Below, one piece after another: positions 52,236 to 64,000 of a DNA stretch of 64,000 nt. Each line of letters starts with the position of its first letter. Positions within the stretch are counted from its first letter, which is position 1. Where the stretch lies: contig NZ_ADNU01000023.1 in NCBI RefSeq assembly GCF_000178455.1, positions 1 to 64,000 on the forward strand. Reading direction: 5' to 3'. The translations under genes and the position numbers were made by a program. This stretch comes from Brevibacterium mcbrellneri ATCC 49030. Its GTDB lineage: Bacteria > Actinomycetota > Actinomycetes > Actinomycetales > Brevibacteriaceae. The notes under the pieces are model-generated. The model saw nothing but the letters and a program-made list of their open reading frames with translations. It had not been told where the DNA came from and ran no database searches.

Positions 52236-54032
52236 GTGCACCTGTTAGGCGCTGAATCGATCAGTCTGTCCTACCCCAACCGGGTCGTTCTTGACGACGT
52301 GACCGTTGGGGTGTCTGCGGGGGACCGCATTGGGATCGTGGGGCGCAACGGTGACGGGAAGTCCACGCTCATTCGGATTCTGTCCTCTGATTTACCGCCG
52401 GACTCCGGCCGGGTAACCTCCCGAGGTGGCACCCGGATTGGGTACTTGCGTCAAAGTGACGTTTTGGGGGAGTCTGCCACGGTGCGCCACGCGGTGGTAG
52501 GCGACGTTCCCGACCACGAATGGGCCTCGGACGCCGAGAAACGCGACGTGATCCATGGGCTTTTGGGTGACCTTCCGCTCGATACTCCCACTCATAGCCT
52601 GTCTGGGGGACAGCGACGCAGGGTCGCACTTGCGGCGCTTCTGGCTCAACCGTGGGATGTGCTCATTTTGGACGAGCCCACCAACCACTTAGACATGACG
52701 GGTGTGCGGTGGCTGGCGGAACACGTGAAGAAGCGGTGGCCAGCCGGGCAAGGTGCGTTCTTGACCGTCACCCACGACAGGTGGTTCCTCGACGAGGTGA
52801 CGACCCGCACGTGGGAAGTCCACGACGCCACAGTGGATGCCTACGACGGCGGCTATGCGGCATATGTTCTGCAACGGGTCGAACGTGACCGGCAGGCACA
52901 GGCGGAAGAAGCTAAACGCCAAAACTTGATGCGAAAAGAACTCGCGTGGCTTCGCCGAGGTGCCCCCGCCCGCACGTCCAAACCCAAGTTCCGTATTGAT
53001 GCGGCGAACGCTTTGATCGCAGGCGAGCCTCCTGTGCGCGACACAGTTGAACTCGTGTCCATGGCAACTTCGCGGCTGGGTAAAGATGTTTTTGAAATGG
53101 TGGGTGCCTCGGCGGCGTTTGCCACAGATGACAATCCCGAGGTCGTTCGCACGGTCATCGAACCGACCGACTGGATCGTGGGGCCCGGCGACCGGATTGG
53201 CATTTTGGGTGCAAACGGTGCTGGAAAATCCACGCTGGTAGGCCTCTTAACAGGGCGAGTTGAACCCGCCTCGGGCAGGGTGAAGCGCGGTAAGACCGTG
53301 CGCGTGGCTTTACTTGACCAGCAGTTACGAGAACTTGACGATGTCCAAGACGACTTTGTGCGCGAAATCGTGGGGCGCAAACGCGAAGTGCAGACCGTGC
53401 AAGGGGAGCTGACGCCTAGCCAGCTCCTTGAGAAGCTGGGCTTGGGAGGCGTTCTCAAGTCGCGGGTGAAGGACCTTTCAGGTGGTCAGAAGCGCAGGCT
53501 TCAGCTGTTCATCGTCCTCATGGATGAGCCGAACGTTTTGATTCTTGACGAGCCCACGAACGACATGGACACCGACATGCTCGCTGCCGTGGAAGATCTG
53601 CTCGATCAGTGGCCGGGCACGCTCATCGTCATTTCGCACGACCGCTACTTCACGGAACGCGTCACTGACTACCAGTACGCGGTACTCGGCGGGCACGTGC
53701 GTCACCTGCCCGGCGGAGTCGATGAGTATCTACGGCTTCAACAAGAGCCCGACGCTTCGTTGCCGCGGAAGGCCTCTGCTGGAGCAGAAGAGGCTCCGGA
53801 AGTGAGCTTGTCGGGTGCCAAGTTGCACGCCGCTCGAAAGGAGATTGCCTCGATCGAGCGTCGTGTCGAGAAGATCAGTGGCCAGATTGAAAAGGTCCAT
53901 GAACGGATGGCCGCCTATGATCAAAGTGACTTCGAAGGGCTCCAAAAGTTCACAGGTGAGATCGACGCCCTGAGACAGGAAACGGATGATCTCGAAGCTC
54001 GATGGCTCGAGCTCTTGGAGGAAATTGAATAG
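52236..54032 (+). CDS. ABC-F family ATPase (Uup-type)
   Basis: A 598-residue soluble protein with two ABC domains, acting on ribosomes or DNA intermediates as in Uup. Domain one: Walker A GRNGDGKSTLI, signature LSGGQRRRVALAA, Walker B LILDEPTNHLD. Domain two: GANGAGKSTLVGLL, LSGGQKRRLQL, LILDEPTNDMDTDM. The linker lies at about residues 225-260 and a C-terminal coiled coil at 520-598 (ARKEIASIERRVEKISGQIE), typical of Uup rather than antibiotic-resistance ABC-F. The start is a GTG. Confidence 0.92.
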   Translation: MHLLGAESISLSYPNRVVLDDVTVGVSAGDRIGIVGRNGDGKSTLIRILSSDLPPDSGRVTSRGGTRIGYLRQSDVLGESATVRHAVVGDVPDHEWASDAEKRDVIHGLLGDLPLDTPTHSLSGGQRRRVALAALLAQPWDVLILDEPTNHLDMTGVRWLAEHVKKRWPAGQGAFLTVTHDRWFLDEVTTRTWEVHDATVDAYDGGYAAYVLQRVERDRQAQAEEAKRQNLMRKELAWLRRGAPARTSKPKFRIDAANALIAGEPPVRDTVELVSMATSRLGKDVFEMVGASAAFATDDNPEVVRTVIEPTDWIVGPGDRIGILGANGAGKSTLVGLLTGRVEPASGRVKRGKTVRVALLDQQLRELDDVQDDFVREIVGRKREVQTVQGELTPSQLLEKLGLGGVLKSRVKDLSGGQKRRLQLFIVLMDEPNVLILDEPTNDMDTDMLAAVEDLLDQWPGTLIVISHDRYFTERVTDYQYAVLGGHVRHLPGGVDEYLRLQQEPDASLPRKASAGAEEAPEVSLSGAKLHAARKEIASIERRVEKISGQIEKVHERMAAYDQSDFEGLQKFTGEIDALRQETDDLEARWLELLEEIE

Positions 54033-55455: not shown

Positions 55456-56217
55456 ATGTACGCAACAACAGCGACTGCCGCCGTGCAGGCGAGGTCTGTC
55501 AACCTTTCAGCCGGGAACACTAGGATTCTACGAGACTGCTCGGTAACAATCCCGCAGAGAGGTCTGACGTCCATAGTCGGACCGAGTGGCGCCGGAAAAA
55601 CGTCACTCCTATACTGCCTGAGCGGACTCGATCAGCCAGACACAGGGCAGATCCTTGTGGGTCAAACCGACATCTATAGCCTGCGTAGCGAAGCGAGAGC
55701 AAAATTCCTGAGGGAGAACGTTGGATTCATATTCCAGCAATACAATCTGATCCCGTACTTAACCGTCGAAGAAAACATTACGCTACCCTCAACTATGGCC
55801 CACAGGAAAATGGATCATGGTTTCCTAACCCATACGATGGAAACGTTTGGATTGCTTGAGAAACGGAAAACTCGGGCAAGTCTACTTTCAGGTGGCGAGC
55901 AACAGCGGGTTGCGCTCTGTCGTTCGATCGTACTATCGCCCGCTGTCATTTTCGCAGACGAGCCGACTGGTGCTCTTGACTCAAGAAACTCGGCACTGGT
56001 CCTGCAGTCTCTCGGAGACTTGGCTTCCCAAGGTGCGACGATCGTTATGGTTACGCACGACGTCGATGCTGCTGCACTCGCAGACAGAGTCGTATTCATG
56101 CACGACGGAACCGTAACAAATATCTCTTCGAATCAAATCAGCCCAAATGAAATATCATCCGTTCTTCGAGGCGAATGGGGAAGCACTACGGAGCAACGGG
56201 GAAGTGCGAAGCCATGA
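55456..56217 (+). CDS. ABC transporter ATPase (LolD/MacB-type) of the lanthipeptide locus
   Basis: A 253-residue ATPase from ATG 55456; AGAAAGGG lies about a dozen bases before it, but in-frame ATGs at 55429 and 55417 are also possible. Walker A is GPSGAGKTSLLYCL, the Q-loop FIFQQYNLIPYLTV, the signature LLSGGEQQRVALCRSIVL, and Walker B IFADEPTGALDSRNS. It overlaps the permease gene by four bases. It resembles ATPases that pair with FtsX-like permeases in peptide export or immunity (LanFEG/MacB-type). Confidence 0.92.
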   Translation: MYATTATAAVQARSVNLSAGNTRILRDCSVTIPQRGLTSIVGPSGAGKTSLLYCLSGLDQPDTGQILVGQTDIYSLRSEARAKFLRENVGFIFQQYNLIPYLTVEENITLPSTMAHRKMDHGFLTHTMETFGLLEKRKTRASLLSGGEQQRVALCRSIVLSPAVIFADEPTGALDSRNSALVLQSLGDLASQGATIVMVTHDVDAAALADRVVFMHDGTVTNISSNQISPNEISSVLRGEWGSTTEQRGSAKP

Positions 56218-57635
56218 CACGCTATATTTGGAAAATCTTTGCCAGTGACGCGAAGAGTTGGATTCCAACGATATTTGTCGTGGCTATAGTGACTGCTCTT
56301 ATCGGGGCTTGCATTAACCAGTTTATCTGGACGAACAGCAGCCCCTTTCAAGTTGCTGCCGCGAATGCGAAACTCGATCCGAGTGAGTTTTCAATGGTAT
56401 CGGTTACCATCTACATCCTGATTGCTGTTGTGGCCGTCTTTACACTCACGGTAATTGGTGCCGCTACCGTAGACCGCACCCGTCAAACCTTCTCCCAGTG
56501 GCGCCTAGCCGGAGCCAGCCCTCGTCAGGTGCGCGGCGGGCTTTGGCTTCTTTTGGGGCTATCGAGCGTCATTGGAGCTGTGCCGGGAGCGGTTCTTGGG
56601 GCCTTTTTGAGCACAGAGGCTGTTCCACTATTTAACGAGATGGCAGCCGAAAGTTTCCCAGACGGAACCGGCAACTTTAGCGCGCCGCCCTTCTCTCCCT
56701 CTGCCGTGGCCACGATTTTGTCGTTCCTCATTGGAGTCGTCACCTGCGTAGCTGGAGCAGTCGTGCCAGCTAGACGCGCCTCGAAAGTAAAGCCCGTTGA
56801 GGCAATACGTGGCGTGGCAGCGGTCACAGGACGGCACAGGGTGCTCAGATGGATAGTCGGTTTGATCATGCTGCTTATCGCGGTCTTCCTCGCATTCAGC
56901 AGCTCACTCATGCCCCAGAATACTGATATCGGTGTTGAAGCCGGCAATATGGTCAACTCAGCGATCATGGCGGGGCTCGTGGCGGCGTTTGGGGCCCTCC
57001 TCCTAGGCTCCGAAATCATCTCCATCGTGCTGGGTAGTATCCGAATGTTGCTTCGGCCCATTCCGGGCACAGCTATCGCACAGGTGGCCGTTAAGCAAGC
57101 GAACGCCCGAGCGACATTCAACGCGAATATGATCGCTCCTCTCGGTGCCGCAGTGGGCCTAAGCGTCGTTATGTTCACCACGCTACGTTCCTACCAAAGG
57201 ACGATGGCGGCCGAAGGGTTTGCCCTCACGAATCCCAACTACACAGACACAGCACTCATGACCGGCCTATTTTGCCTTGCCGCTTTGTTGACCAGCATCG
57301 CAGTTATCTGTCTTTCAGGACGAGATTCCGTATTGGAGCAAGGCGCCTTGAGGACAGCAGGGCTCACGCCACATCAAGTCCTGGCTCTCCTAGTCTGGCA
57401 AACTTTCCAGCTGACAGTTAGTACAATCATCATCGCGTTGATCCCGGTACTCACCACGAGCGCCGTCTTGGTGGCCAGGTCTACATTAATCGCTGGAACC
57501 TCAATGCTCTCAATCCCATTACTCCATTTTATCGCCGCAGCATTTGTATGCTGGCTTGCGCTATTCCTCGTTCAATGGGTGCAGTTGGCTCCATGGCTGT
57601 GCCGTAGTCCCGCGGTTAGCCTAAGGAGGGCTTGA
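56214..57635 (+). CDS. FtsX-like ABC permease of the lanthipeptide locus
   Basis: A 473-residue permease from ATG 56214 (ATGA overlap). A first TM at about 19-38, then an FtsX domain (three TM, with GASPRQVRGGLWLLLGLSSVIG), the linker VVPARRASKVKPVEAIRGVAA, and a second FtsX set (LAALLTSIAVICLSGRDS, AGLTPHQVLALLVWQTF). This two-domain form matches MacB-like or BceB-like fold pairs. Peptide export or self-protection fits the neighbours but is inferred. Confidence 0.88.
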   Translation: MTRYIWKIFASDAKSWIPTIFVVAIVTALIGACINQFIWTNSSPFQVAAANAKLDPSEFSMVSVTIYILIAVVAVFTLTVIGAATVDRTRQTFSQWRLAGASPRQVRGGLWLLLGLSSVIGAVPGAVLGAFLSTEAVPLFNEMAAESFPDGTGNFSAPPFSPSAVATILSFLIGVVTCVAGAVVPARRASKVKPVEAIRGVAAVTGRHRVLRWIVGLIMLLIAVFLAFSSSLMPQNTDIGVEAGNMVNSAIMAGLVAAFGALLLGSEIISIVLGSIRMLLRPIPGTAIAQVAVKQANARATFNANMIAPLGAAVGLSVVMFTTLRSYQRTMAAEGFALTNPNYTDTALMTGLFCLAALLTSIAVICLSGRDSVLEQGALRTAGLTPHQVLALLVWQTFQLTVSTIIIALIPVLTTSAVLVARSTLIAGTSMLSIPLLHFIAAAFVCWLALFLVQWVQLAPWLCRSPAVSLRRA

Positions 57636-57636
57636 C

Positions 57637-57928
57637 GTGATGGGCACACCGAAGTCATACTGCTCGCCAACTGAGGCGACTCCGGGTGGCTCAGGTAGCT
57701 CTGGGGTCTTCGTCTCACTCATGCTGGGGATGCTCCTCTGTCTTCTCGGTGTCCAGCGCGCCTGGGCATTGAGAACGAGTGACAACCATTGGAAGAGCGG
57801 AGCCGCTGCCGCAGCTTGGACGGGGGTGCCAGTTGTCTCCGATTGTCTGGATTGTGCTGATTATATTCGGTACCGTTTTGTTTACGATTTCCGCGCTACC
57901 GTTCGGTGAGCTCGCGAAGTATGTGTGA
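57637..57928 (+). pseudogene. Small two-TM membrane protein, frameshifted
   Basis: The first frame (GTG 57637 or ATG 57640) gives VFVSLMLGMLLCLLGVQRAWAL, a TM helix, then soluble residues. Near 57800 the frame that makes sense changes: the next frame reads SPIVWIVLIIFGTVLFTIS and ends TGA 57926-57928, which overlaps the histidine kinase ATG. A GCN-rich tract (GCCGCTGCCGCAGC) marks the likely shift. This suggests a single gene of about 96 residues with two TM segments, broken by one insertion/deletion or by a sequencing error. Confidence 0.6.
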
Positions 57929-59303
57929 CCAGACCAACTATGAGGGAGCACCACAAGTGCCTTACGAGCAGCGCCAGAATCCAGTAAAGGAGACGACCGC
58001 ACGCTACTGGCAGGTGCTCGGCGAGTGGCTGTCGCAGTCGGCAGTGCCTCCCGGCCGGCCATCTGCTGGCCTCATCGCAGGCGTGATCATCTGTTCCAGT
58101 TACCAGACCTTCTTTATTGCGCGTCTTCTGTTCGTCGGTACGCCCGCGGATGGCACCGCCTTCCACCTCAGTGGCGTCTGGTACGGCGCGATAGTGCTCG
58201 CCGTGGCTGTCATTGGCTCCGCTGCTGTCCTGATAGCCTCATCTCGCGCTCCACTTACAGTGCTGGGGGTTGAGTGTGTCTTACACGTTGTGGGCTCGGC
58301 TCTTGGAATGGCGAACTATTTTGTTTTCCCTCTGTTATTCGCTCTGTTTAGCTGCATCACCAGGTCATTGGCGTGGATTGCCGCAACTGGGATTCTGACG
58401 GTCCTTGTCGCGATGGCCGCCAGCTCTCTCATAGTCGCACGTCCGGGAACCTTCGGTGCCGAACTCGTGGGCCAACTCATCACTGCGGCCGCCTTCGCTG
58501 CCGTTGGAATTGCGACCCGCAGCGTCCGTGCGTGGCGTAGCTCAAGTAGAAGGGTTCGCACTGCGCAGGCCCAGGCTCAACATTACGAGTACGAAAGAGA
58601 TGAGGCCATCGTTCGGGCACGCATTGCGGAAGAACTGCATGATAGCGTCGGCCATGGTTTAACCACCATCGCCGCGTTGGCTGAAGGACTAAGTGGCGTG
58701 ACCGGTGACGCCCGGTTCGACGAGGTATTAGACGGCATCAATCAGGTAGCGCGCGAAAGCCTGGAAGATACCCGTCGCGCAGTACATCGGCTTTCAGCAG
58801 CTACTCACGTATCCGAATGCCTCGACGTCGCACATATCGAGACGGGAGCCATCGTCGATGCAGGAAACGGTGAGAGCCGGTTCCGGTACCGTCACTGGGA
58901 CGACATAGTACCGATCCTCGACCACGTACGGTCCCTCGGCGTGACCGTCATATTTACAGAAACCGGACGTCGTCAGGAACACCTGGAACACTCGCATCTG
59001 TGTTTTTCGATTACCCGAGAAAGTCTGACTAATGCCATACGCCATACCACTTGTCTCGAGCGCGTGACCGTGTCATGGGACCATTCAGAAAAAGCAACAC
59101 GCATTACTGTGAGGAACGACGGAGTTGAGCGGTCGCTACCGTCGCGAGTCGGCTCCCAGCACGCGCCCGGGACCGGGGTCCGGAGGTTGCGACGACAGGT
59201 TGAGCAAACTGGGGGTTCTCTATCCTCTGGCTACGAAGACGATGCGGACTGGGTACTAGTGGCCGACGTTCTAGTTCCCGACAAGGAGGTCGGTCACCCA
59301 TGA
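57921..59303 (+). CDS. NarL-type sensor histidine kinase
   Basis: A 460-residue two-component kinase. I start at ATG 57921, whose codon overlaps the upstream stop (ATGTGTGA). Six TM segments lie at about residues 50-210. The HisKA_3 box is ARIAEELHDSVGHGLTTIAALAEG with His240. The ATPase domain has ITRESLTNAIRH and NDGVERS, ending HAPGTGVRRLRRQVEQTGG. It overlaps the regulator by four bases. The small external loops suggest sensing within the membrane, like LiaS-type kinases. Confidence 0.92.
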   Translation: MCDQTNYEGAPQVPYEQRQNPVKETTARYWQVLGEWLSQSAVPPGRPSAGLIAGVIICSSYQTFFIARLLFVGTPADGTAFHLSGVWYGAIVLAVAVIGSAAVLIASSRAPLTVLGVECVLHVVGSALGMANYFVFPLLFALFSCITRSLAWIAATGILTVLVAMAASSLIVARPGTFGAELVGQLITAAAFAAVGIATRSVRAWRSSSRRVRTAQAQAQHYEYERDEAIVRARIAEELHDSVGHGLTTIAALAEGLSGVTGDARFDEVLDGINQVARESLEDTRRAVHRLSAATHVSECLDVAHIETGAIVDAGNGESRFRYRHWDDIVPILDHVRSLGVTVIFTETGRRQEHLEHSHLCFSITRESLTNAIRHTTCLERVTVSWDHSEKATRITVRNDGVERSLPSRVGSQHAPGTGVRRLRRQVEQTGGSLSSGYEDDADWVLVADVLVPDKEVGHP

Positions 59304-60004
59304 AGGATTCAACTATGACCGCAATGCACCACCGGACGTTGAAGGTTATGATTGTTGACGATCAGCGGCTAGCTCGCACCGGATTCTCCTTGATGCTGGC
59401 GAAGACGGGAGCGGTCAACGTGATAGCGGAGGCCTCCGATGGCCAGCAAGCAATTCAGGTGCTGGATTCGCGCTACCGCAGTCGCGACCCCCTCCCCAAC
59501 GTCATACTCATGGATGTTCGGATGCCAGTTATGGACGGCATCGAGGCAACCAGACGCATCACGATCGATTACCCCAGCGTAAAAGTACTCGTACTGACGA
59601 CTTTTGACGAGGATGACTATGCGTTCGGAGCACTCGCCGCAGGCGCTTCGGGCTTTCTACTCAAGGATGTTCGAGCCACCCAGCTTGCCACGGCGTTGCA
59701 GGCTGTGGCGCAGGGGGACGCGATCTTGACTCCACGCATCACGCGCCAAGTCCTCGAACGTGGCATAGTTAGGGCTTCTTCCGCTGGCGAGAAGCGCGCC
59801 CGGCAAGCGCAGTTCGCACAATTAAGCCCTCGCGAATTCGATATTGCACGTTTAATAGCCGATGGCCTTTCAAATGCTGAAATAGCGCAGAAACTCGTTC
59901 TTCAGCCGGCATCGATCCGCCGAAATGTAAGCCGAATCTTGGCAAAACTGGAACTCCGCGATCGGGTACAGATCGCTGTCGAATGGTATAAGTCAGGCAT
60001 GTGA
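59300..60004 (+). CDS. NarL/FixJ-type response regulator
   Basis: A 234-residue regulator: receiver domain with phospho-acceptor Asp72 in VILMDVRMPVMDGIEA, switch Thr in VLVLTTFDEDDYAF and Lys in LLKDVRATQ. LuxR-type HTH at about 165-230 (LSPREFDIARLIADGLSNAEIAQK). The end RRNVSRILAKLELRDRVQIAVEWY replaces the usual T-V-K-x-H of NarL proteins by A-S-I-R-R-N-V, a change at the recognition helix. It is expected to drive the lanthipeptide genes. Confidence 0.93.
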   Translation: MKDSTMTAMHHRTLKVMIVDDQRLARTGFSLMLAKTGAVNVIAEASDGQQAIQVLDSRYRSRDPLPNVILMDVRMPVMDGIEATRRITIDYPSVKVLVLTTFDEDDYAFGALAAGASGFLLKDVRATQLATALQAVAQGDAILTPRITRQVLERGIVRASSAGEKRARQAQFAQLSPREFDIARLIADGLSNAEIAQKLVLQPASIRRNVSRILAKLELRDRVQIAVEWYKSGM

Positions 60005-60980
60005 CTTCTGTCCCCTGCGTCTATGTTGCAACCGGCTACAAAGGCGAGCCGCCGAGTTACGCCATGCCTATCCGATACGAATATCAACATTGTAGGTACG
60101 CAATGAAACTCCGTCCCGGGGAGTGACAAGTTGAGAGTATTCTCTCGACCCCACATTCCTCGACTTCGTCACTTACGACTCGCGTACCCGTCATGTTGCG
60201 CCTAAGGTCTACGCCGGCAACGGTCTGCCCTGGTAAGGAGCTCAGGCACAACTGTGAGCACCGTCAGAGCAGGATCTGGTCCGTAGCTTAGGGCTTCCTG
60301 AGACCGGCCTCAGCCATAATCACACCGGCGCCTACCGATCTCGGTCATGAGACCACTAGGAGGGGCTCGCCCAGTGGCCATCTGGAAAAGGGCTAATGAC
60401 ACTCCTCTTGCGCTTGGCGCATACTCGCTACGCTTCGAGATGGAAGCCCCATTCCCCGGCATGCCCCGTATCTTCAACACGTGGGATGGTGCGAGACGAC
60501 CGGCACCGAGCTGAGCCAGGTGGCGCACGACAACCTGCGCTAACCGACCCTGCTCTCCTATCGGGAGAGATCCGAATCATTTCAGTGCATTCGTGCCCTG
60601 CTGAAACGCCCGCAACGACTTCAAGTATCTGCGCTCAATATCGACGCGCTCACAGGCGTGCTGGTCACAAACAGCCGTGGACGCTACACCGTGTCATCAA
60701 TCGTTCATCATCGTGCCTGATGGGCCAGCAAGCAGACAAGGGCCATCGTCGACATGGGGCCGCGCCCTCGCCGTTCACTCTCTTGGCGGGACAGACGACG
60801 GTAGCTAGACGAACGCGGGTTGGGGCGGAGGCACTGGGTTCCCATTGGGTCAATCCCGCTTCAGACTGTCATTTCGCGATGACAGTTCCAGCCATCTCCT
60901 GGTCTAGCTACTGCACGCGTGGTGAGCTTGCAACAACAGGGAATTCACAGCGGAGCCATAAACGACGAGGAGGTCATCTC
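60005..60980. other. Non-coding stretch between response regulator and LanKC
   Basis: No intact gene in 976 bases. Short frames read like fragments of proteins: about 60150-60234 (ending YAGNGLPW), 60320-60514 (LGGARPVAIWKRANDT ... FPGMPRIFNTWDGA) and 60550-60719 (RLQVSALNIDALTGVLVTNS). They lie in different frames with stops between them, so they are either decayed genes or chance. An inverted repeat (TTGAGAG/CTCTCGA) lies near 60131-60148, and an 8-base palindrome at 60865-60886. Confidence 0.45.
60865..60886. promoter_or_regulatory. Palindrome ACTGTCAT-N6-ATGACAGT upstream of lanKC
   Basis: A perfect inverted repeat with arms of eight bases and a TTCGCG centre, about 95 bases before the lanKC GTG. 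A TTGGGT at 60845-60850 lies 17 bases before GTCATT, so a promoter may overlap it. The half site ACTGTCAT also occurs at 55339-55346, before the ABC transporter genes. It is a candidate site for the local response regulator. Confidence 0.5.
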
Positions 60981-62951
60981 GTGCCAATCGATCTGAGATA
61001 TGTGCCGTATTGCCACCCGGAGTTCGCATTTTACACTCCGATTGATAACGCACCGTCAGCGCGCTTGGACTCGAACGTGGTGATTCCCAGTTCATGGGAG
61101 ATCATCAACGGTCAACCTTGGACTCACGCCAAGCCTCGGAACGTCGACCTGCCGCGCCAGGGCTGGAAAGTGCACGTTTCTGCCACACTGGCCAACAGAG
61201 AGCATGTTCTCGAGACCGTAGCAACATTCTGCGTTGACCGCGAGATTTCCTTCAAATATCTCTCGACGCACGCTGATTATCTTGCCTTGAACGGCAAATA
61301 CACAAACCGCGGTTCTGCCGGAAAATTCGTGACGATCTATCCGTGCGATATCGATCAGTTCGAAGATACGTTGCTGGGTCTCGAAGACTGCATTGGAGCA
61401 GAGGAGGGACCCTACATCCTTTCTGATCGGAAATGGGGATCGGGCCCCGTCTTCTACCGCTACGGTGCTTTCTTGCCACCCGAGCAGCCTACTCAGTTCG
61501 AGAGCACGCTGATCGACCCACAAGGCAACGTAGTGGAAGACGTACGGCGACCAATTTTTACCCTGCCCTCATGGGTTGAAGAGCCAGCATTTGTCAAGGA
61601 GAGGAAACAGAACGCCGCCATTGATGCGCAGTTCCCCTTCGACATGAAGACTGCCCTACACTTTTCCGCCGGAGGTGGCGTCTACGTTGCCGAAGCAAAC
61701 TCCTCTGAGTATGTGCCAGAAGGAACGCGTGTAGTCCTGAAGGAGGCAAGGCCCTTTGCTGCGCTCGATACAGAAGGCAAGGACGCGGTCGCACGCCTCC
61801 GGCATGAACACCGCGTACTTTGTGAACTTGCACATACGTCATATGTGCCTCGTACATACGCGCTTTTCAAGGCATGGGACAACTTGTACCTGGTAATGGA
61901 TTACGTAGACGGCTCAAGCCTAAAACGTGAAACGATGCTTCGAACACCAGTACTTAAGCCCGCTCCGTGGAAGCTAGAAGATGCAGCTTTCAATACATGG
62001 CTCACAGGTGTGGTGCAGGAGACCGACAAAGCAGTCCAAGCTTTTCACGAGGCAGGATGGCTTCTAGGCGACATTCACCCGAAGAACATTGTTCTGGAGG
62101 GAGGCACACGACCGGTCTTTATCGATTTCGAATTCGCACATCCGGTGGACCCTGACTGGCGCATAGGTCAAGTCGCACCTGGGTATGGACCCCGTAAGGG
62201 TTTATCGGGGAGCGACGCCGACCTGTGGTCACTGGGAATCACGCAGTTGGACATGGTCCTCCCTCAGGCTACGACAGCAGATCAGGGCAATGAGGGGCTT
62301 TTATACAGGCTCCTTGACGAAGCAGATCAGGAGTTGTCGCTCCCAGCGAGCGTGAGTCATTCGATCTCCCAAAAGCTTCCTACCGACGATGACGGAGGGG
62401 AGCAACAGACGTTGCAGGCTGCACCGCTGGACACGGTTCTGAATCTCCTGGTGTCAGGCGTTGAAAGACACATTAGGTTTACCGATGACAGCCCAGCGTT
62501 GCCAGGAGACATTGAACTCTTCGGCCGGGGAGGCGTGGAGGCGGCACTCTCATACCCGTACGGGATCGCGGGAGCTCTCGCCGTCACAGCGAAAGCCGGG
62601 CGTCCGTTAGACCAGAGGTATGTCGAGCTCTCCGTCCCGTGGATCGAGAAGAACCTTTCGCACGTGAGCACACCAGGATTCCGGGGACGGGATGGCCTCG
62701 ACTACGGCCTCCGGCAGGCCGGAATGCGCGAGCTCGCCTTGGAGGTTTCATCGTTATCTGTCGCGGACCCCGTCGACCCCACGTATTGGTCGGGTTGGGC
62801 CGGATTAGGGCTCAATGCCCTGTCGTCGAACGAAACTGACAAGGCTCTCAGAGCCTCTGCAGGCCTCAGGCGGATGTTGCGTGATGGGCTACACCACGGA
62901 GTCAGCAGGTCTCCTGTATGGATGGTCCGGCGCGGCTATTTTCTGGTCTGA
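60981..62951 (+). CDS. lanKC: Class III lanthionine synthetase LanKC, lyase-kinase part (frameshifted)
   Basis: Phosphorylates and eliminates Ser/Thr of the precursor and then helps cyclisation. GTG 60981 follows GAGGAGG. The N-terminal lyase-like domain (about 1-190) has FKYLSTHADYLALNGKYTNR and GSAGKFVTIYPCD. The kinase domain has ATP Lys254 (VVLKEARP), RLRHEHRVL, LVMDYVDG, catalytic Asp364 (LLGDIHPKNIVL) and metal Asp382 (FIDFEFAHP). The cyclase domain begins after about residue 500, but this frame is lost at about 62905 and stops at 62951. An upstream reading to 60396 is not LanKC-like. Confidence 0.9.
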   Translation: MPIDLRYVPYCHPEFAFYTPIDNAPSARLDSNVVIPSSWEIINGQPWTHAKPRNVDLPRQGWKVHVSATLANREHVLETVATFCVDREISFKYLSTHADYLALNGKYTNRGSAGKFVTIYPCDIDQFEDTLLGLEDCIGAEEGPYILSDRKWGSGPVFYRYGAFLPPEQPTQFESTLIDPQGNVVEDVRRPIFTLPSWVEEPAFVKERKQNAAIDAQFPFDMKTALHFSAGGGVYVAEANSSEYVPEGTRVVLKEARPFAALDTEGKDAVARLRHEHRVLCELAHTSYVPRTYALFKAWDNLYLVMDYVDGSSLKRETMLRTPVLKPAPWKLEDAAFNTWLTGVVQETDKAVQAFHEAGWLLGDIHPKNIVLEGGTRPVFIDFEFAHPVDPDWRIGQVAPGYGPRKGLSGSDADLWSLGITQLDMVLPQATTADQGNEGLLYRLLDEADQELSLPASVSHSISQKLPTDDDGGEQQTLQAAPLDTVLNLLVSGVERHIRFTDDSPALPGDIELFGRGGVEAALSYPYGIAGALAVTAKAGRPLDQRYVELSVPWIEKNLSHVSTPGFRGRDGLDYGLRQAGMRELALEVSSLSVADPVDPTYWSGWAGLGLNALSSNETDKALRASAGLRRMLRDGLHHGVSRSPVWMVRRGYFLV

Positions 62952-63513
62952 GCTCTACAAGAGGTCAGATCAAGAGGGTGAACTTGTAGACCTGGCTAAA
63001 GAGGCCATTGATCGCGAATTGCGCCGGTGCTCGCTGACGCAGAACGGAACCGTCGAGTACGACGAAGGATGGCGGACACTTCCGTACCTGGGTACGGGAT
63101 CGTGTGGTATCGCCCTGGCGATTCACGAGCTTAGAGCTGCAACTGGTACGGATCTTTACGAAGACGAGTACCGCAAATTAATACGCGCGTGCACGTACTA
63201 CCAATGTGCGCAAGGCACGTACGGATACGGGTTGGCAGGGTTTGCGACAGTGCTGAATCGGGCCAAGGCCTCACTGTCGCCTGATGCAGCCATGGCACTA
63301 AAGAAGGCCCCAGATACGTTGCGGCTCTTCCTTGTACCAAGGGATGGCTCTGCCTTCGTCAGGGGCAACCAAGGCCTCAAGCTTTCATGTGACTTCCTGA
63401 CCGGGTCGTTGGGAGTAGTCGCGGCGCTTTCCGCACTACGAGGCGACTGGTCAGGGGTTCCGTTCCTCCCCGGGGGCGGAAACGACGCGAATGAACGAGA
63501 GGAGGTGTATTAG
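62884..63513 (+). CDS. LanKC cyclase domain, C-terminal part in the next frame
   Basis: Continues LanKC in the +1 frame: AGLLYGWSGAAIFWSELYKR, then CSLTQNGTVEYDEGWRTLPYLGTGSCGIALAI and DFLTGSLGVVAALSAL. These are the conserved cyclase repeats; the zinc Cys-Cys-His of class I, II and IV cyclases is absent, as expected for class III. The ATG at 62884 is only an assumed start if it is a separate chain; more likely it is one protein with a one-base insertion or two-base deletion near 62903-62911. Combined length would be about 844 residues, normal for LanKC. Confidence 0.85.
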   Translation: MGYTTESAGLLYGWSGAAIFWSELYKRSDQEGELVDLAKEAIDRELRRCSLTQNGTVEYDEGWRTLPYLGTGSCGIALAIHELRAATGTDLYEDEYRKLIRACTYYQCAQGTYGYGLAGFATVLNRAKASLSPDAAMALKKAPDTLRLFLVPRDGSAFVRGNQGLKLSCDFLTGSLGVVAALSALRGDWSGVPFLPGGGNDANEREEVY

Positions 63514-63515
63514 TC

Positions 63516-63650
63516 ATGATGGAGCAGATTCTGAACTTTCAGACCATGTCCACCGATGGTGAGCGTGAGGACTTCGCTCGGGTGAGCACGTTGAGCTTCA
63601 ACGGACCGTGCCCCGGTCTGCCGAGCGCTTTCACCTACAGCAACTGCTGA
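63516..63650 (+). CDS. lanA: Class III lanthipeptide precursor LanA
   Basis: A 44-residue peptide, two bases after the LanKC stop, with GAGGAGG upstream. The leader has ILNFQ (residues 5-9), a form of the class III ILxLQ recognition motif, and an acidic stretch. The core holds Ser24-x-x-Ser27-x4-Cys32 and Ser37-x-x-Thr40-x3-Cys44, the spacing that becomes labionin or lanthionine rings, as in labyrinthopeptins. The core ends with Cys. There are two adjacent ATG codons (63516 and 63519). No database search was done. Confidence 0.9.
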   Translation: MMEQILNFQTMSTDGEREDFARVSTLSFNGPCPGLPSAFTYSNC

Positions 63651-63661
63651 CCCAACTGGTT

Positions 63662-63699
63662 GGGTGGCGACTGTAAGGCTGCCCTTGCAGTCGCCACCC
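63662..63699 (+). terminator. Strong hairpin after lanA
   Basis: Arms GGGTGGCGACTG (63662-63673) and CAGTCGCCACCC (63688-63699) pair perfectly, and the inner AAGG/CCTT bases extend the stem past a T-G wobble to 17 pairs around CTGC. No T tract follows. It could stabilise the lanA mRNA and reduce read-through to the next gene, so that precursor exceeds enzyme. Confidence 0.8.
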
Positions 63700-63782
63700 T
63701 AACTGTCGCACGACGATTTGCACTGGGTCTTAGAACACGGTTTTCAGCACCATCAGTACAGATCGTAAAATGAAGGAGTCCT

Positions 63783-64000
63783 GTGAGCAGAATCGAGATT
63801 CCTAGTTTCTGCGTCGATGCGCGCGAGCTTCAGCCTGTTCTCAGCCCGCTTGTAGAAGAGTTGAAGGCTTTCGAAATAACGTCGCAATCGGTCCGGCCTG
63901 ACGACCGAGGCGACGCGGCTTCTAAAAAGCCGAAGGTATCACCTGCTGTTGTTGGTGGACGCTTACTTTTGCGGATCGCTGACGAGGGCTCTACACGTGA
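63783..64000 (+). CDS. Unknown gene downstream of lanA, partial
   Basis: Starts at GTG 63783 after GAAGGAG and is open to the right window edge (72 codons): MSRIEIPSFCVDARELQPVL and PLVEELKAFEITSQSV, then PAVVGGRLLLRIADEG. I do not recognise it. By position it may be a processing protease, transporter or tailoring enzyme for the lanthipeptide. Confidence 0.65.
   Translation, partial: MSRIEIPSFCVDARELQPVLSPLVEELKAFEITSQSVRPDDRGDAASKKPKVSPAVVGGRLLLRIADEGSTR

What the first reader, a model, noticed from the sequence alone, without database searches (positions are those of the whole stretch)
55456..64000. Class III lanthipeptide locus with a labyrinthopeptin-like precursor
A complete set of parts is present: export ABC pair, NarL-type two-component system, LanKC and a 44-residue LanA, which no ordinary ORF calling would flag. 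The precursor has the ILNFQ leader motif and two S-x-x-S/T-x(3-4)-C units (Ser24/Ser27/Cys32 and Ser37/Thr40/Cys44), so two labionin or lanthionine rings are predicted, with the second ending in a terminal Cys as in labyrinthopeptins. The core Pro-Cys-Pro-Gly-Leu-Pro linker between rings is unlike the labyrinthopeptin core that I recall.
Basis: partly seen in the sequence, partly recalled or inferred. Interest (0 to 1): 0.85.

Follow-up and report, generated by a model that had tools for sequence, protein, structure and literature searches.

The report
Class III lanthipeptide cluster, broken synthetase
This is a real gene cluster for a small ring-bearing peptide of a known kind (class III lanthipeptide), already listed in a 2017 paper on Brevibacterium genomes, but in this assembly the ring-making enzyme gene is split by a reading-frame error.

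Summary
The 44-residue precursor at 63516-63650 follows a class III LanKC, a two-component system and an export ABC pair.

Three corrections. (1) The set is not intact: LanKC is split by a net +1 frameshift at about 62886-62898, while seven homologues read through. (2) The cluster runs past the window edge: an S9 serine peptidase (contig 63783-65624) and an ABC exporter (to 67321) follow. (3) It is not new: genome statistics match Brevibacterium mcbrellneri ATCC 49030, whose class III cluster and precursor (BreC, HMPREF0183_0898) were predicted by Pham et al. 2017 (PMC5719810).

The core is not labyrinthopeptin-like in sequence; it forms its own S-x2-S-x3/4-C-x-G-x-P-S-x2-T-x3-C family. One new point is moderately supported: the S9 peptidase is closer to oligopeptidase B or PREPL than to prolyl oligopeptidase, and all four loci known to carry it have Arg two residues before the first ring Ser, so cleavage after that Arg is the likely leader-removal step.

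The parts
55456..56217 (+). ABC transporter ATPase of an export pair (MacB/LolD/DarD-like)
   Evidence: Pfam ABC_tran 2.9e-31, NCBIfam L_ocin_972_ABC 2.8e-53; 57-58% identical orthologues beside LanKC in Bifidobacterium and G016
56214..57635 (+). FtsX-type permease of the export pair
   Evidence: Pfam FtsX 3.7e-11; 47% identical orthologue in the Bifidobacterium loci
57906..59303 (+). Sensor histidine kinase (HisKA_3)
   Evidence: Pfam HisKA_3 5e-14; homologues in the Bifidobacterium loci
59300..60004 (+). NarL/LuxR-type response regulator
   Evidence: Pfam Response_reg 6e-25 and GerE 3e-12
60981..62951 (+). LanKC synthetase, first reading frame (lyase, kinase, start of cyclase); GTG start
   Evidence: NCBIfam lanthi_synth_III 6e-151, 504.6 bits vs lanthi_synth_IV 296 bits; RamC_N 3e-62
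62886..62898 (+). Interval where homology changes reading frame (net +1 frameshift in LanKC)
   Evidence: tblastn segments and codon listing; seven homologues have no break
62899..63513 (+). LanKC synthetase, second reading frame (rest of the cyclase domain)
   Evidence: lanthi_synth_III profile positions 655-832, E 1e-43, and LANC_like 1e-6
63516..63650 (+). LanA precursor, 44 aa: leader with ILNFQ, core with S24/S27/C32 and S37/T40/C44
   Evidence: lanthi_III_a 16.2 bits, below the cut-off of 22; five of nine family members match that model, best E 1.7e-5
63783..64000 (+). Start of the S9 serine peptidase gene, which runs on to contig position 65624 outside the window; an ABC exporter with fused membrane and ATPase domains follows at about 65615-67321
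   Evidence: Contig extension, Peptidase_S9 1.9e-21 and ABC_membrane plus ABC_tran

Best explanation
The locus encodes a class III lanthipeptide pathway. LanKC binds the leader through the ILNFQ motif, phosphorylates and eliminates core Ser/Thr, and its metal-independent cyclase joins them to Cys32 and Cys44. This gives two ring systems from S24/S27/C32 and S37/T40/C44, either labionin (methyl-labionin where Thr40 takes part) or plain lanthionine, held apart by a conserved linker with invariant G-x-P-S. A cluster-encoded S9 peptidase related to oligopeptidase B most likely cuts the leader after Arg22, and the ABC systems export the product or protect the producer, under control of the two-component system. 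In the assembly examined, LanKC is interrupted by a single-base frameshift in the cyclase domain, so this strain either makes no finished peptide or the base is a sequencing error. Shown here: genes, homology, ring-residue conservation, the frameshift. Inferred: all chemistry, the cleavage site, export and regulation.
For: LanKC class III scores. Precursor immediately 3' of LanKC here, in four Bifidobacterium species, G016/G017/G019, a Dermatophilus MAG, a MAG labelled Cardiobacteriaceae, G702, G862 and G850. Invariant L6, Q9, S24, S27, C32, G34, P36, S37, T40, C44 in 9 distinct precursors. Frameshift placed by tblastn and absent from seven homologues. Other overlapping-frame neighbours in the window each hit separate families, so the break is not part of general assembly noise. 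S9 peptidase: best matches PREPL and oligopeptidase B; triad residues S464, D549, H582 invariant, F490 and D508 invariant at the positions of SpOpB F558 and E576 (role of E576 from PMC9917282). Arg22 is present in all four loci known to carry this peptidase type.
Against: No product is known. The precursor scores below the curated cut-off of its NCBIfam model. Sequence cannot tell labionin from lanthionine. The Arg/peptidase link rests on four loci with the peptidase against two or three without; two further Arg-bearing loci (G702, Dermatophilus MAG) are cut off before the peptidase could be seen. OpB's second acidic position is not conserved in the family (D, D, M, Y), and the structure model is weak exactly around D508.
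Confidence: 0.85

Rival explanations
1. The frameshift is a sequencing or assembly error and the cluster is intact and functional in the living strain.
For: Both halves of LanKC remain well conserved (52% and 59% identity to Bifidobacterium) with no further stops; all other cluster genes are open; the assembly is a 96-contig draft.
Against: The break is not in a long homopolymer (the longest run nearby is three G), and the overlapping-frame gene pairs tested elsewhere in the window are not split genes.
Confidence: 0.4
2. The leader is removed by a Pro-specific prolyl oligopeptidase as in flavipeptin (FlaP), not by an Arg-specific enzyme.
For: The peptidase is in Pfam Peptidase_S9 and Pham et al. 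note weak homology to FlaP. In G850 a canonical POP-type enzyme (GTSNGG motif) sits beside a precursor with Pro near the core.
Against: The window precursor has no Pro in its leader; its only Pro residues are in the core. Its peptidase matches oligopeptidase B and PREPL better than POP.
Confidence: 0.25
3. Leader removal is done by a host protease outside the cluster (AplP-like M1 or M16 type), and the S9 enzyme has another role such as trimming or self-protection.
For: AplP-type enzymes outside clusters serve several class III systems (PMC10885120); G862 has the precursor family without any S9 peptidase found nearby.
Against: The S9 peptidase gene is kept in four divergent clusters of this family whose gene order is otherwise reshuffled.
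Confidence: 0.3
4. The 44-residue ORF is a chance match and not a precursor.
For: It is short and below the NCBIfam cut-off.
Against: Nine distinct homologues, nearly all beside LanKC, share the ring residues; chance expectation is near zero.
Confidence: 0.01

Closest known systems
BreC, HMPREF0183_0898, B. mcbrellneri ATCC 49030 class III lanthipeptide cluster (Pham et al. 2017, PMC5719810)
   Same: Very likely the same gene cluster: same genome statistics (96 contigs, about 2.6 Mb, 58% GC), class III LanKC, precursor with two Ser/Ser(Thr)/Cys motifs.
   Different: The printed BreC sequence is in a figure and could not be compared letter by letter. The passages read do not mention the LanKC frameshift, the Bifidobacterium relatives or the Arg/peptidase link.
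BreA1/BreLI lanthipeptide island of cheese Brevibacterium and Corynebacterium casei (probably G016, G017, G019)
   Same: LanKC about 48% identical, precursor with the same core family, ABC pair and S9 peptidase.
   Different: Published as an approximately 96-kb integrative conjugative element; G016 has two LanKC genes, the window locus one.
Labyrinthopeptins (Actinomadura namibiensis)
   Same: Class III, two S-x2-S-type units, second unit ending in a C-terminal Cys.
   Different: Core sequence differs (from memory); the family here has an invariant G-x-P-S between rings and Thr in the second unit.
NAI-112 (Actinoplanes)
   Same: Two ring units, one a methyl-labionin (PMC8624038), so Thr in a unit has precedent; BAGEL4 filed a Brevibacterium relative under NAI-112 (PMC6579920).
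   Different: NAI-112 is glycosylated on Trp; no glycosyltransferase was recognised among the genes examined here. Its cluster protease is the M1 enzyme AplP, not S9.
Flavipeptin with prolyl oligopeptidase FlaP (Kribbella flavida)
   Same: Class III cluster with an S9-family peptidase.
   Different: FlaP cuts after Pro(-12) in the leader; this leader has no Pro and the peptidase resembles oligopeptidase B or PREPL.

Membership tests
Class III lanthipeptide cluster | LanKC synthetase with lyase, kinase and LanC-like domains, scoring as class III rather than class IV | tested here: met
   lanthi_synth_III 504.6 + 149.9 bits over two frames vs lanthi_synth_IV 296.2 + 27.5; RamC_N, Pkinase, LANC_like
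Class III lanthipeptide cluster | Intact LanKC reading frame (bears on function in this assembly, not on family) | tested here: not met
   Net +1 frameshift at about 62886-62898; seven homologues intact
Class III lanthipeptide cluster | Adjacent precursor with (I/L/V)-L-x-(L/F)-Q leader motif | tested here: met
   ILNFQ at residues 5-9; L6 and Q9 invariant in 9 homologues
Class III lanthipeptide cluster | S-x2-S/T-x2-5-C ring units in the core | tested here: met
   Two units, all six residues invariant
Class III lanthipeptide cluster | Dehydrated, ring-closed product | not testable with these tools
   Needs expression and mass spectrometry
Labyrinthopeptin | Core sequence related to LabA peptides | tested here: inconclusive
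   No reference labyrinthopeptin sequence was fetched; from memory the core differs, and the homologues found here form their own P-C-P-G-W/L-P-S family
Labyrinthopeptin | Labionin residues | not testable with these tools
   Labionin and lanthionine cannot be told apart from sequence
FlaP-type prolyl oligopeptidase leader peptidase | S9 peptidase in the cluster | tested here: met
   Peptidase_S9 1.9e-21
FlaP-type prolyl oligopeptidase leader peptidase | Pro in the leader as cleavage site | tested here: not met
   Leader MMEQILNFQTMSTDGEREDFARV has no Pro
Oligopeptidase B | Acidic S1 residue (SpOpB E576) and F558 equivalents | tested here: met
   D508 and F490 invariant in four cluster peptidases
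Oligopeptidase B | Full-length match to the OpB equivalog | tested here: not met
   PRK10115 60.1 bits against a cut-off of 1313: related, not an orthologue

The most novel reading that the evidence does not exclude
The S9 peptidase of this precursor family is an Arg-specific, oligopeptidase B-like leader peptidase that cuts after the Arg two residues before the first ring Ser. That would be a leader-removal type distinct from FlaP (Pro), AplP (M1), M16 and AmyP (S8), and would explain why Pham et al. found flaP-like genes beside leaders that lack Pro.
Probability: 0.4. Interest if true: 0.45.

Novelty: already known. Interest (0 to 1): 0.3.

Why it matters
The cluster itself is a published prediction, so its weight is mostly as a checked annotation with a correction: the synthetase is broken in this assembly. 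The family is nevertheless a clean target. The same precursor core recurs in several actinobacterial families, and four Bifidobacterium species carry it, with an intact LanKC, on a nearly identical stretch of at least 17.9 kb that points to recent transfer between species. The peptidase link gives a simple test of how leaders without Pro are removed.

Tried and rejected
Chance ORF: rejected by simulation and conservation. Class IV (LanL): rejected on score. RNA families in the window: none at gathering threshold. Search of the literature for the core motifs CPGWPS, PGWPSA and CPGLPS: only an unrelated concrete paper. AlphaFold model of the S9 peptidase to inspect the S1 pocket: mean pLDDT 65.8 and below 50 at residues 496-536, so not usable for D508; Foldseek puts PREPL, POP and OpB nearly level. 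The intergenic stretch 60005-60980 has no DNA similarity to the fetched loci. A search centred on Bifidobacterium by locus id failed and was redone by genome handle.

Full report
What is there. A pattern of leader motif plus two ring units occurs once in the window and never in 60 simulated windows with the same dinucleotide make-up. Upstream are an ABC ATPase, an FtsX-type permease, a HisKA_3 sensor kinase, a NarL-type regulator and a LanKC.

The synthetase is broken in this assembly. LanKC is class III by score (504.6 bits for the first part against 296.2 for class IV; 149.9 against 27.5 for the second part), but the two parts lie in different frames: 60981-62951 and 62815-63513. tblastn against relatives places the change of frame between about 62886 and 62898, a net gain of one base. 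Seven homologues (Bifidobacterium, G016, Dermatophilus MAG, the MAG labelled Cardiobacteriaceae, G702, G862, G850) are open over 829-860 codons with no stop. Other neighbouring genes in the window that overlap in different frames hit separate families and are not split genes, so the break is isolated. Whether it is real or a sequencing error cannot be settled here.

The cluster goes on beyond the window. Contig positions 63783-65624 encode an S9-family serine peptidase and 65615-67321 a transporter with fused membrane and ATPase domains. With these the locus has precursor, synthetase, peptidase, two transport systems and a two-component system.

The precursor belongs to a family. Relatives were found beside LanKC in four Bifidobacterium species (moraviense, callitrichos, reuteri, vespertilionis; identical precursors, 64% identical to this one), in G016/G017/G019 of the same genus, in a Dermatophilus MAG and in a MAG labelled Cardiobacteriaceae, and in G702, G862 and G850; G127 has the precursor at a contig end. 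Across nine distinct sequences L6, Q9, S24, S27, C32, G34, P36, S37, T40 and C44 are invariant. That the six proposed ring residues are all invariant, while the leader and the residues between them drift, is strong independent support for the two-ring reading. The GxPS linker is equally invariant. Five of the nine match the NCBIfam class III precursor model at E below 0.1, best 1.7e-5. More distant LanKCs, the second LanKC of G016 and the one in G049, carry different precursors.

It is already described. The window's genome has 96 contigs and 2,561,804 bases, the window is 58.1% GC, and its genus has genomes of about 2.3-4.9 Mb. B. mcbrellneri ATCC 49030 is listed with 96 contigs (ADNU01000001-96), 2.6 Mb and 58.0% GC, and with a class III lanthipeptide cluster whose precursor is BreC, HMPREF0183_0898 (PMC5719810). 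I infer that this is the same cluster; the sequence in their figure could not be compared. Related clusters on the BreLI island of cheese Brevibacterium and Corynebacterium casei are also published (PMC5719810, PMC6579920), and in vitro tests there did not confirm antimicrobial activity. No paper in the library joins Bifidobacterium callitrichos with lanthipeptides.

How it probably works. Established knowledge of class III enzymes (structure of ThurKC, PMC10604976) gives the steps: leader binding, phosphorylation, elimination, and cyclisation without zinc, to lanthionine or labionin. Which of the two forms here cannot be read from sequence. Methyl-labionin in NAI-112 (PMC8624038) shows that Thr in a unit is workable.

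Leader removal. Pham et al. noted flaP-like genes in six of seven clusters although only one of six precursors has a Pro in its leader. The peptidase here matches PREPL (3e-26) and oligopeptidase B (6e-21) better than prolyl oligopeptidase (1.5e-17); the Bifidobacterium one matches oligopeptidase B at 1e-30 against 1e-16 for the POP group; the only NCBIfam hit is oligopeptidase B, far below its cut-off. Ser464, Asp549 and His582 are invariant among four cluster peptidases, as are F490 and D508 at the positions of SpOpB F558 and E576 (the residue numbers in SpOpB were assigned by counting from the printed alignment and S532). In oligopeptidase B E576 binds the P1 Arg or Lys (PMC9917282). All four loci with this enzyme have Ala-Arg directly before V/I and the first ring Ser. 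G862 has no S9 match nearby and has Gly-Leu at that place; G127 also has Gly-Leu with no S9 match in the 14 kb examined, though its contig begins next to the precursor. G850 has a POP-type enzyme (GTSNGG) and a Pro-Leu. Cleavage after Arg22 is therefore my leading model, at moderate confidence: the sample is small, OpB's second acidic position varies (D, D, M, Y), and the structure model is too poor around D508 to help.

Verdict. A correct and well-read observation of a published, uncharacterised class III lanthipeptide cluster, with one overlooked defect (frameshifted LanKC) and one overlooked gene (the S9 peptidase outside the window).

Noticed in passing
53390-53728 and contig C74 70185-70523: A 339-base stretch of the ABC-F gene (52236-54032) is repeated at 97% identity beyond the cluster, where only the 3' part of an ABC-F gene (70192-70827) is present; the lanthipeptide cluster lies between the two copies, perhaps a trace of how it was inserted.
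   Followed up: partly
L028, L029, L030, L033: The 17.9 kb fetched around LanKC is at least 99.9% identical in four Bifidobacterium species, and the precursor occurs in only 4 of 112 Bifidobacterium genomes: likely a recently moved element.
   Followed up: partly
L045 (G702:C10:20211-20339): A homologous precursor in a 1.9-Mb genome has TGA where most others have the Trp of P-G-W-P-S, a second sign of decay in this family or a recoded stop.
   Followed up: no
L034 and L035 (G016): A second LanKC about 10 kb downstream has its own precursor, EEVRKVNNVLELQKLELKDHAMAAHPISTSSLFSCTESTISFLNCG, with Pro where the first has Arg, although only one S9 peptidase gene was found.
   Followed up: partly
L032: A contig binned as Cardiobacteriaceae (Gammaproteobacteria) carries a LanKC 37% identical to this actinobacterial one, with precursor and peptidase; probably a misbinned contig.
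   Followed up: no
60005-60980: Nearly 1 kb between the response regulator and LanKC with no convincing gene and no similarity to the relatives; could hold promoters or a decayed gene.
   Followed up: partly
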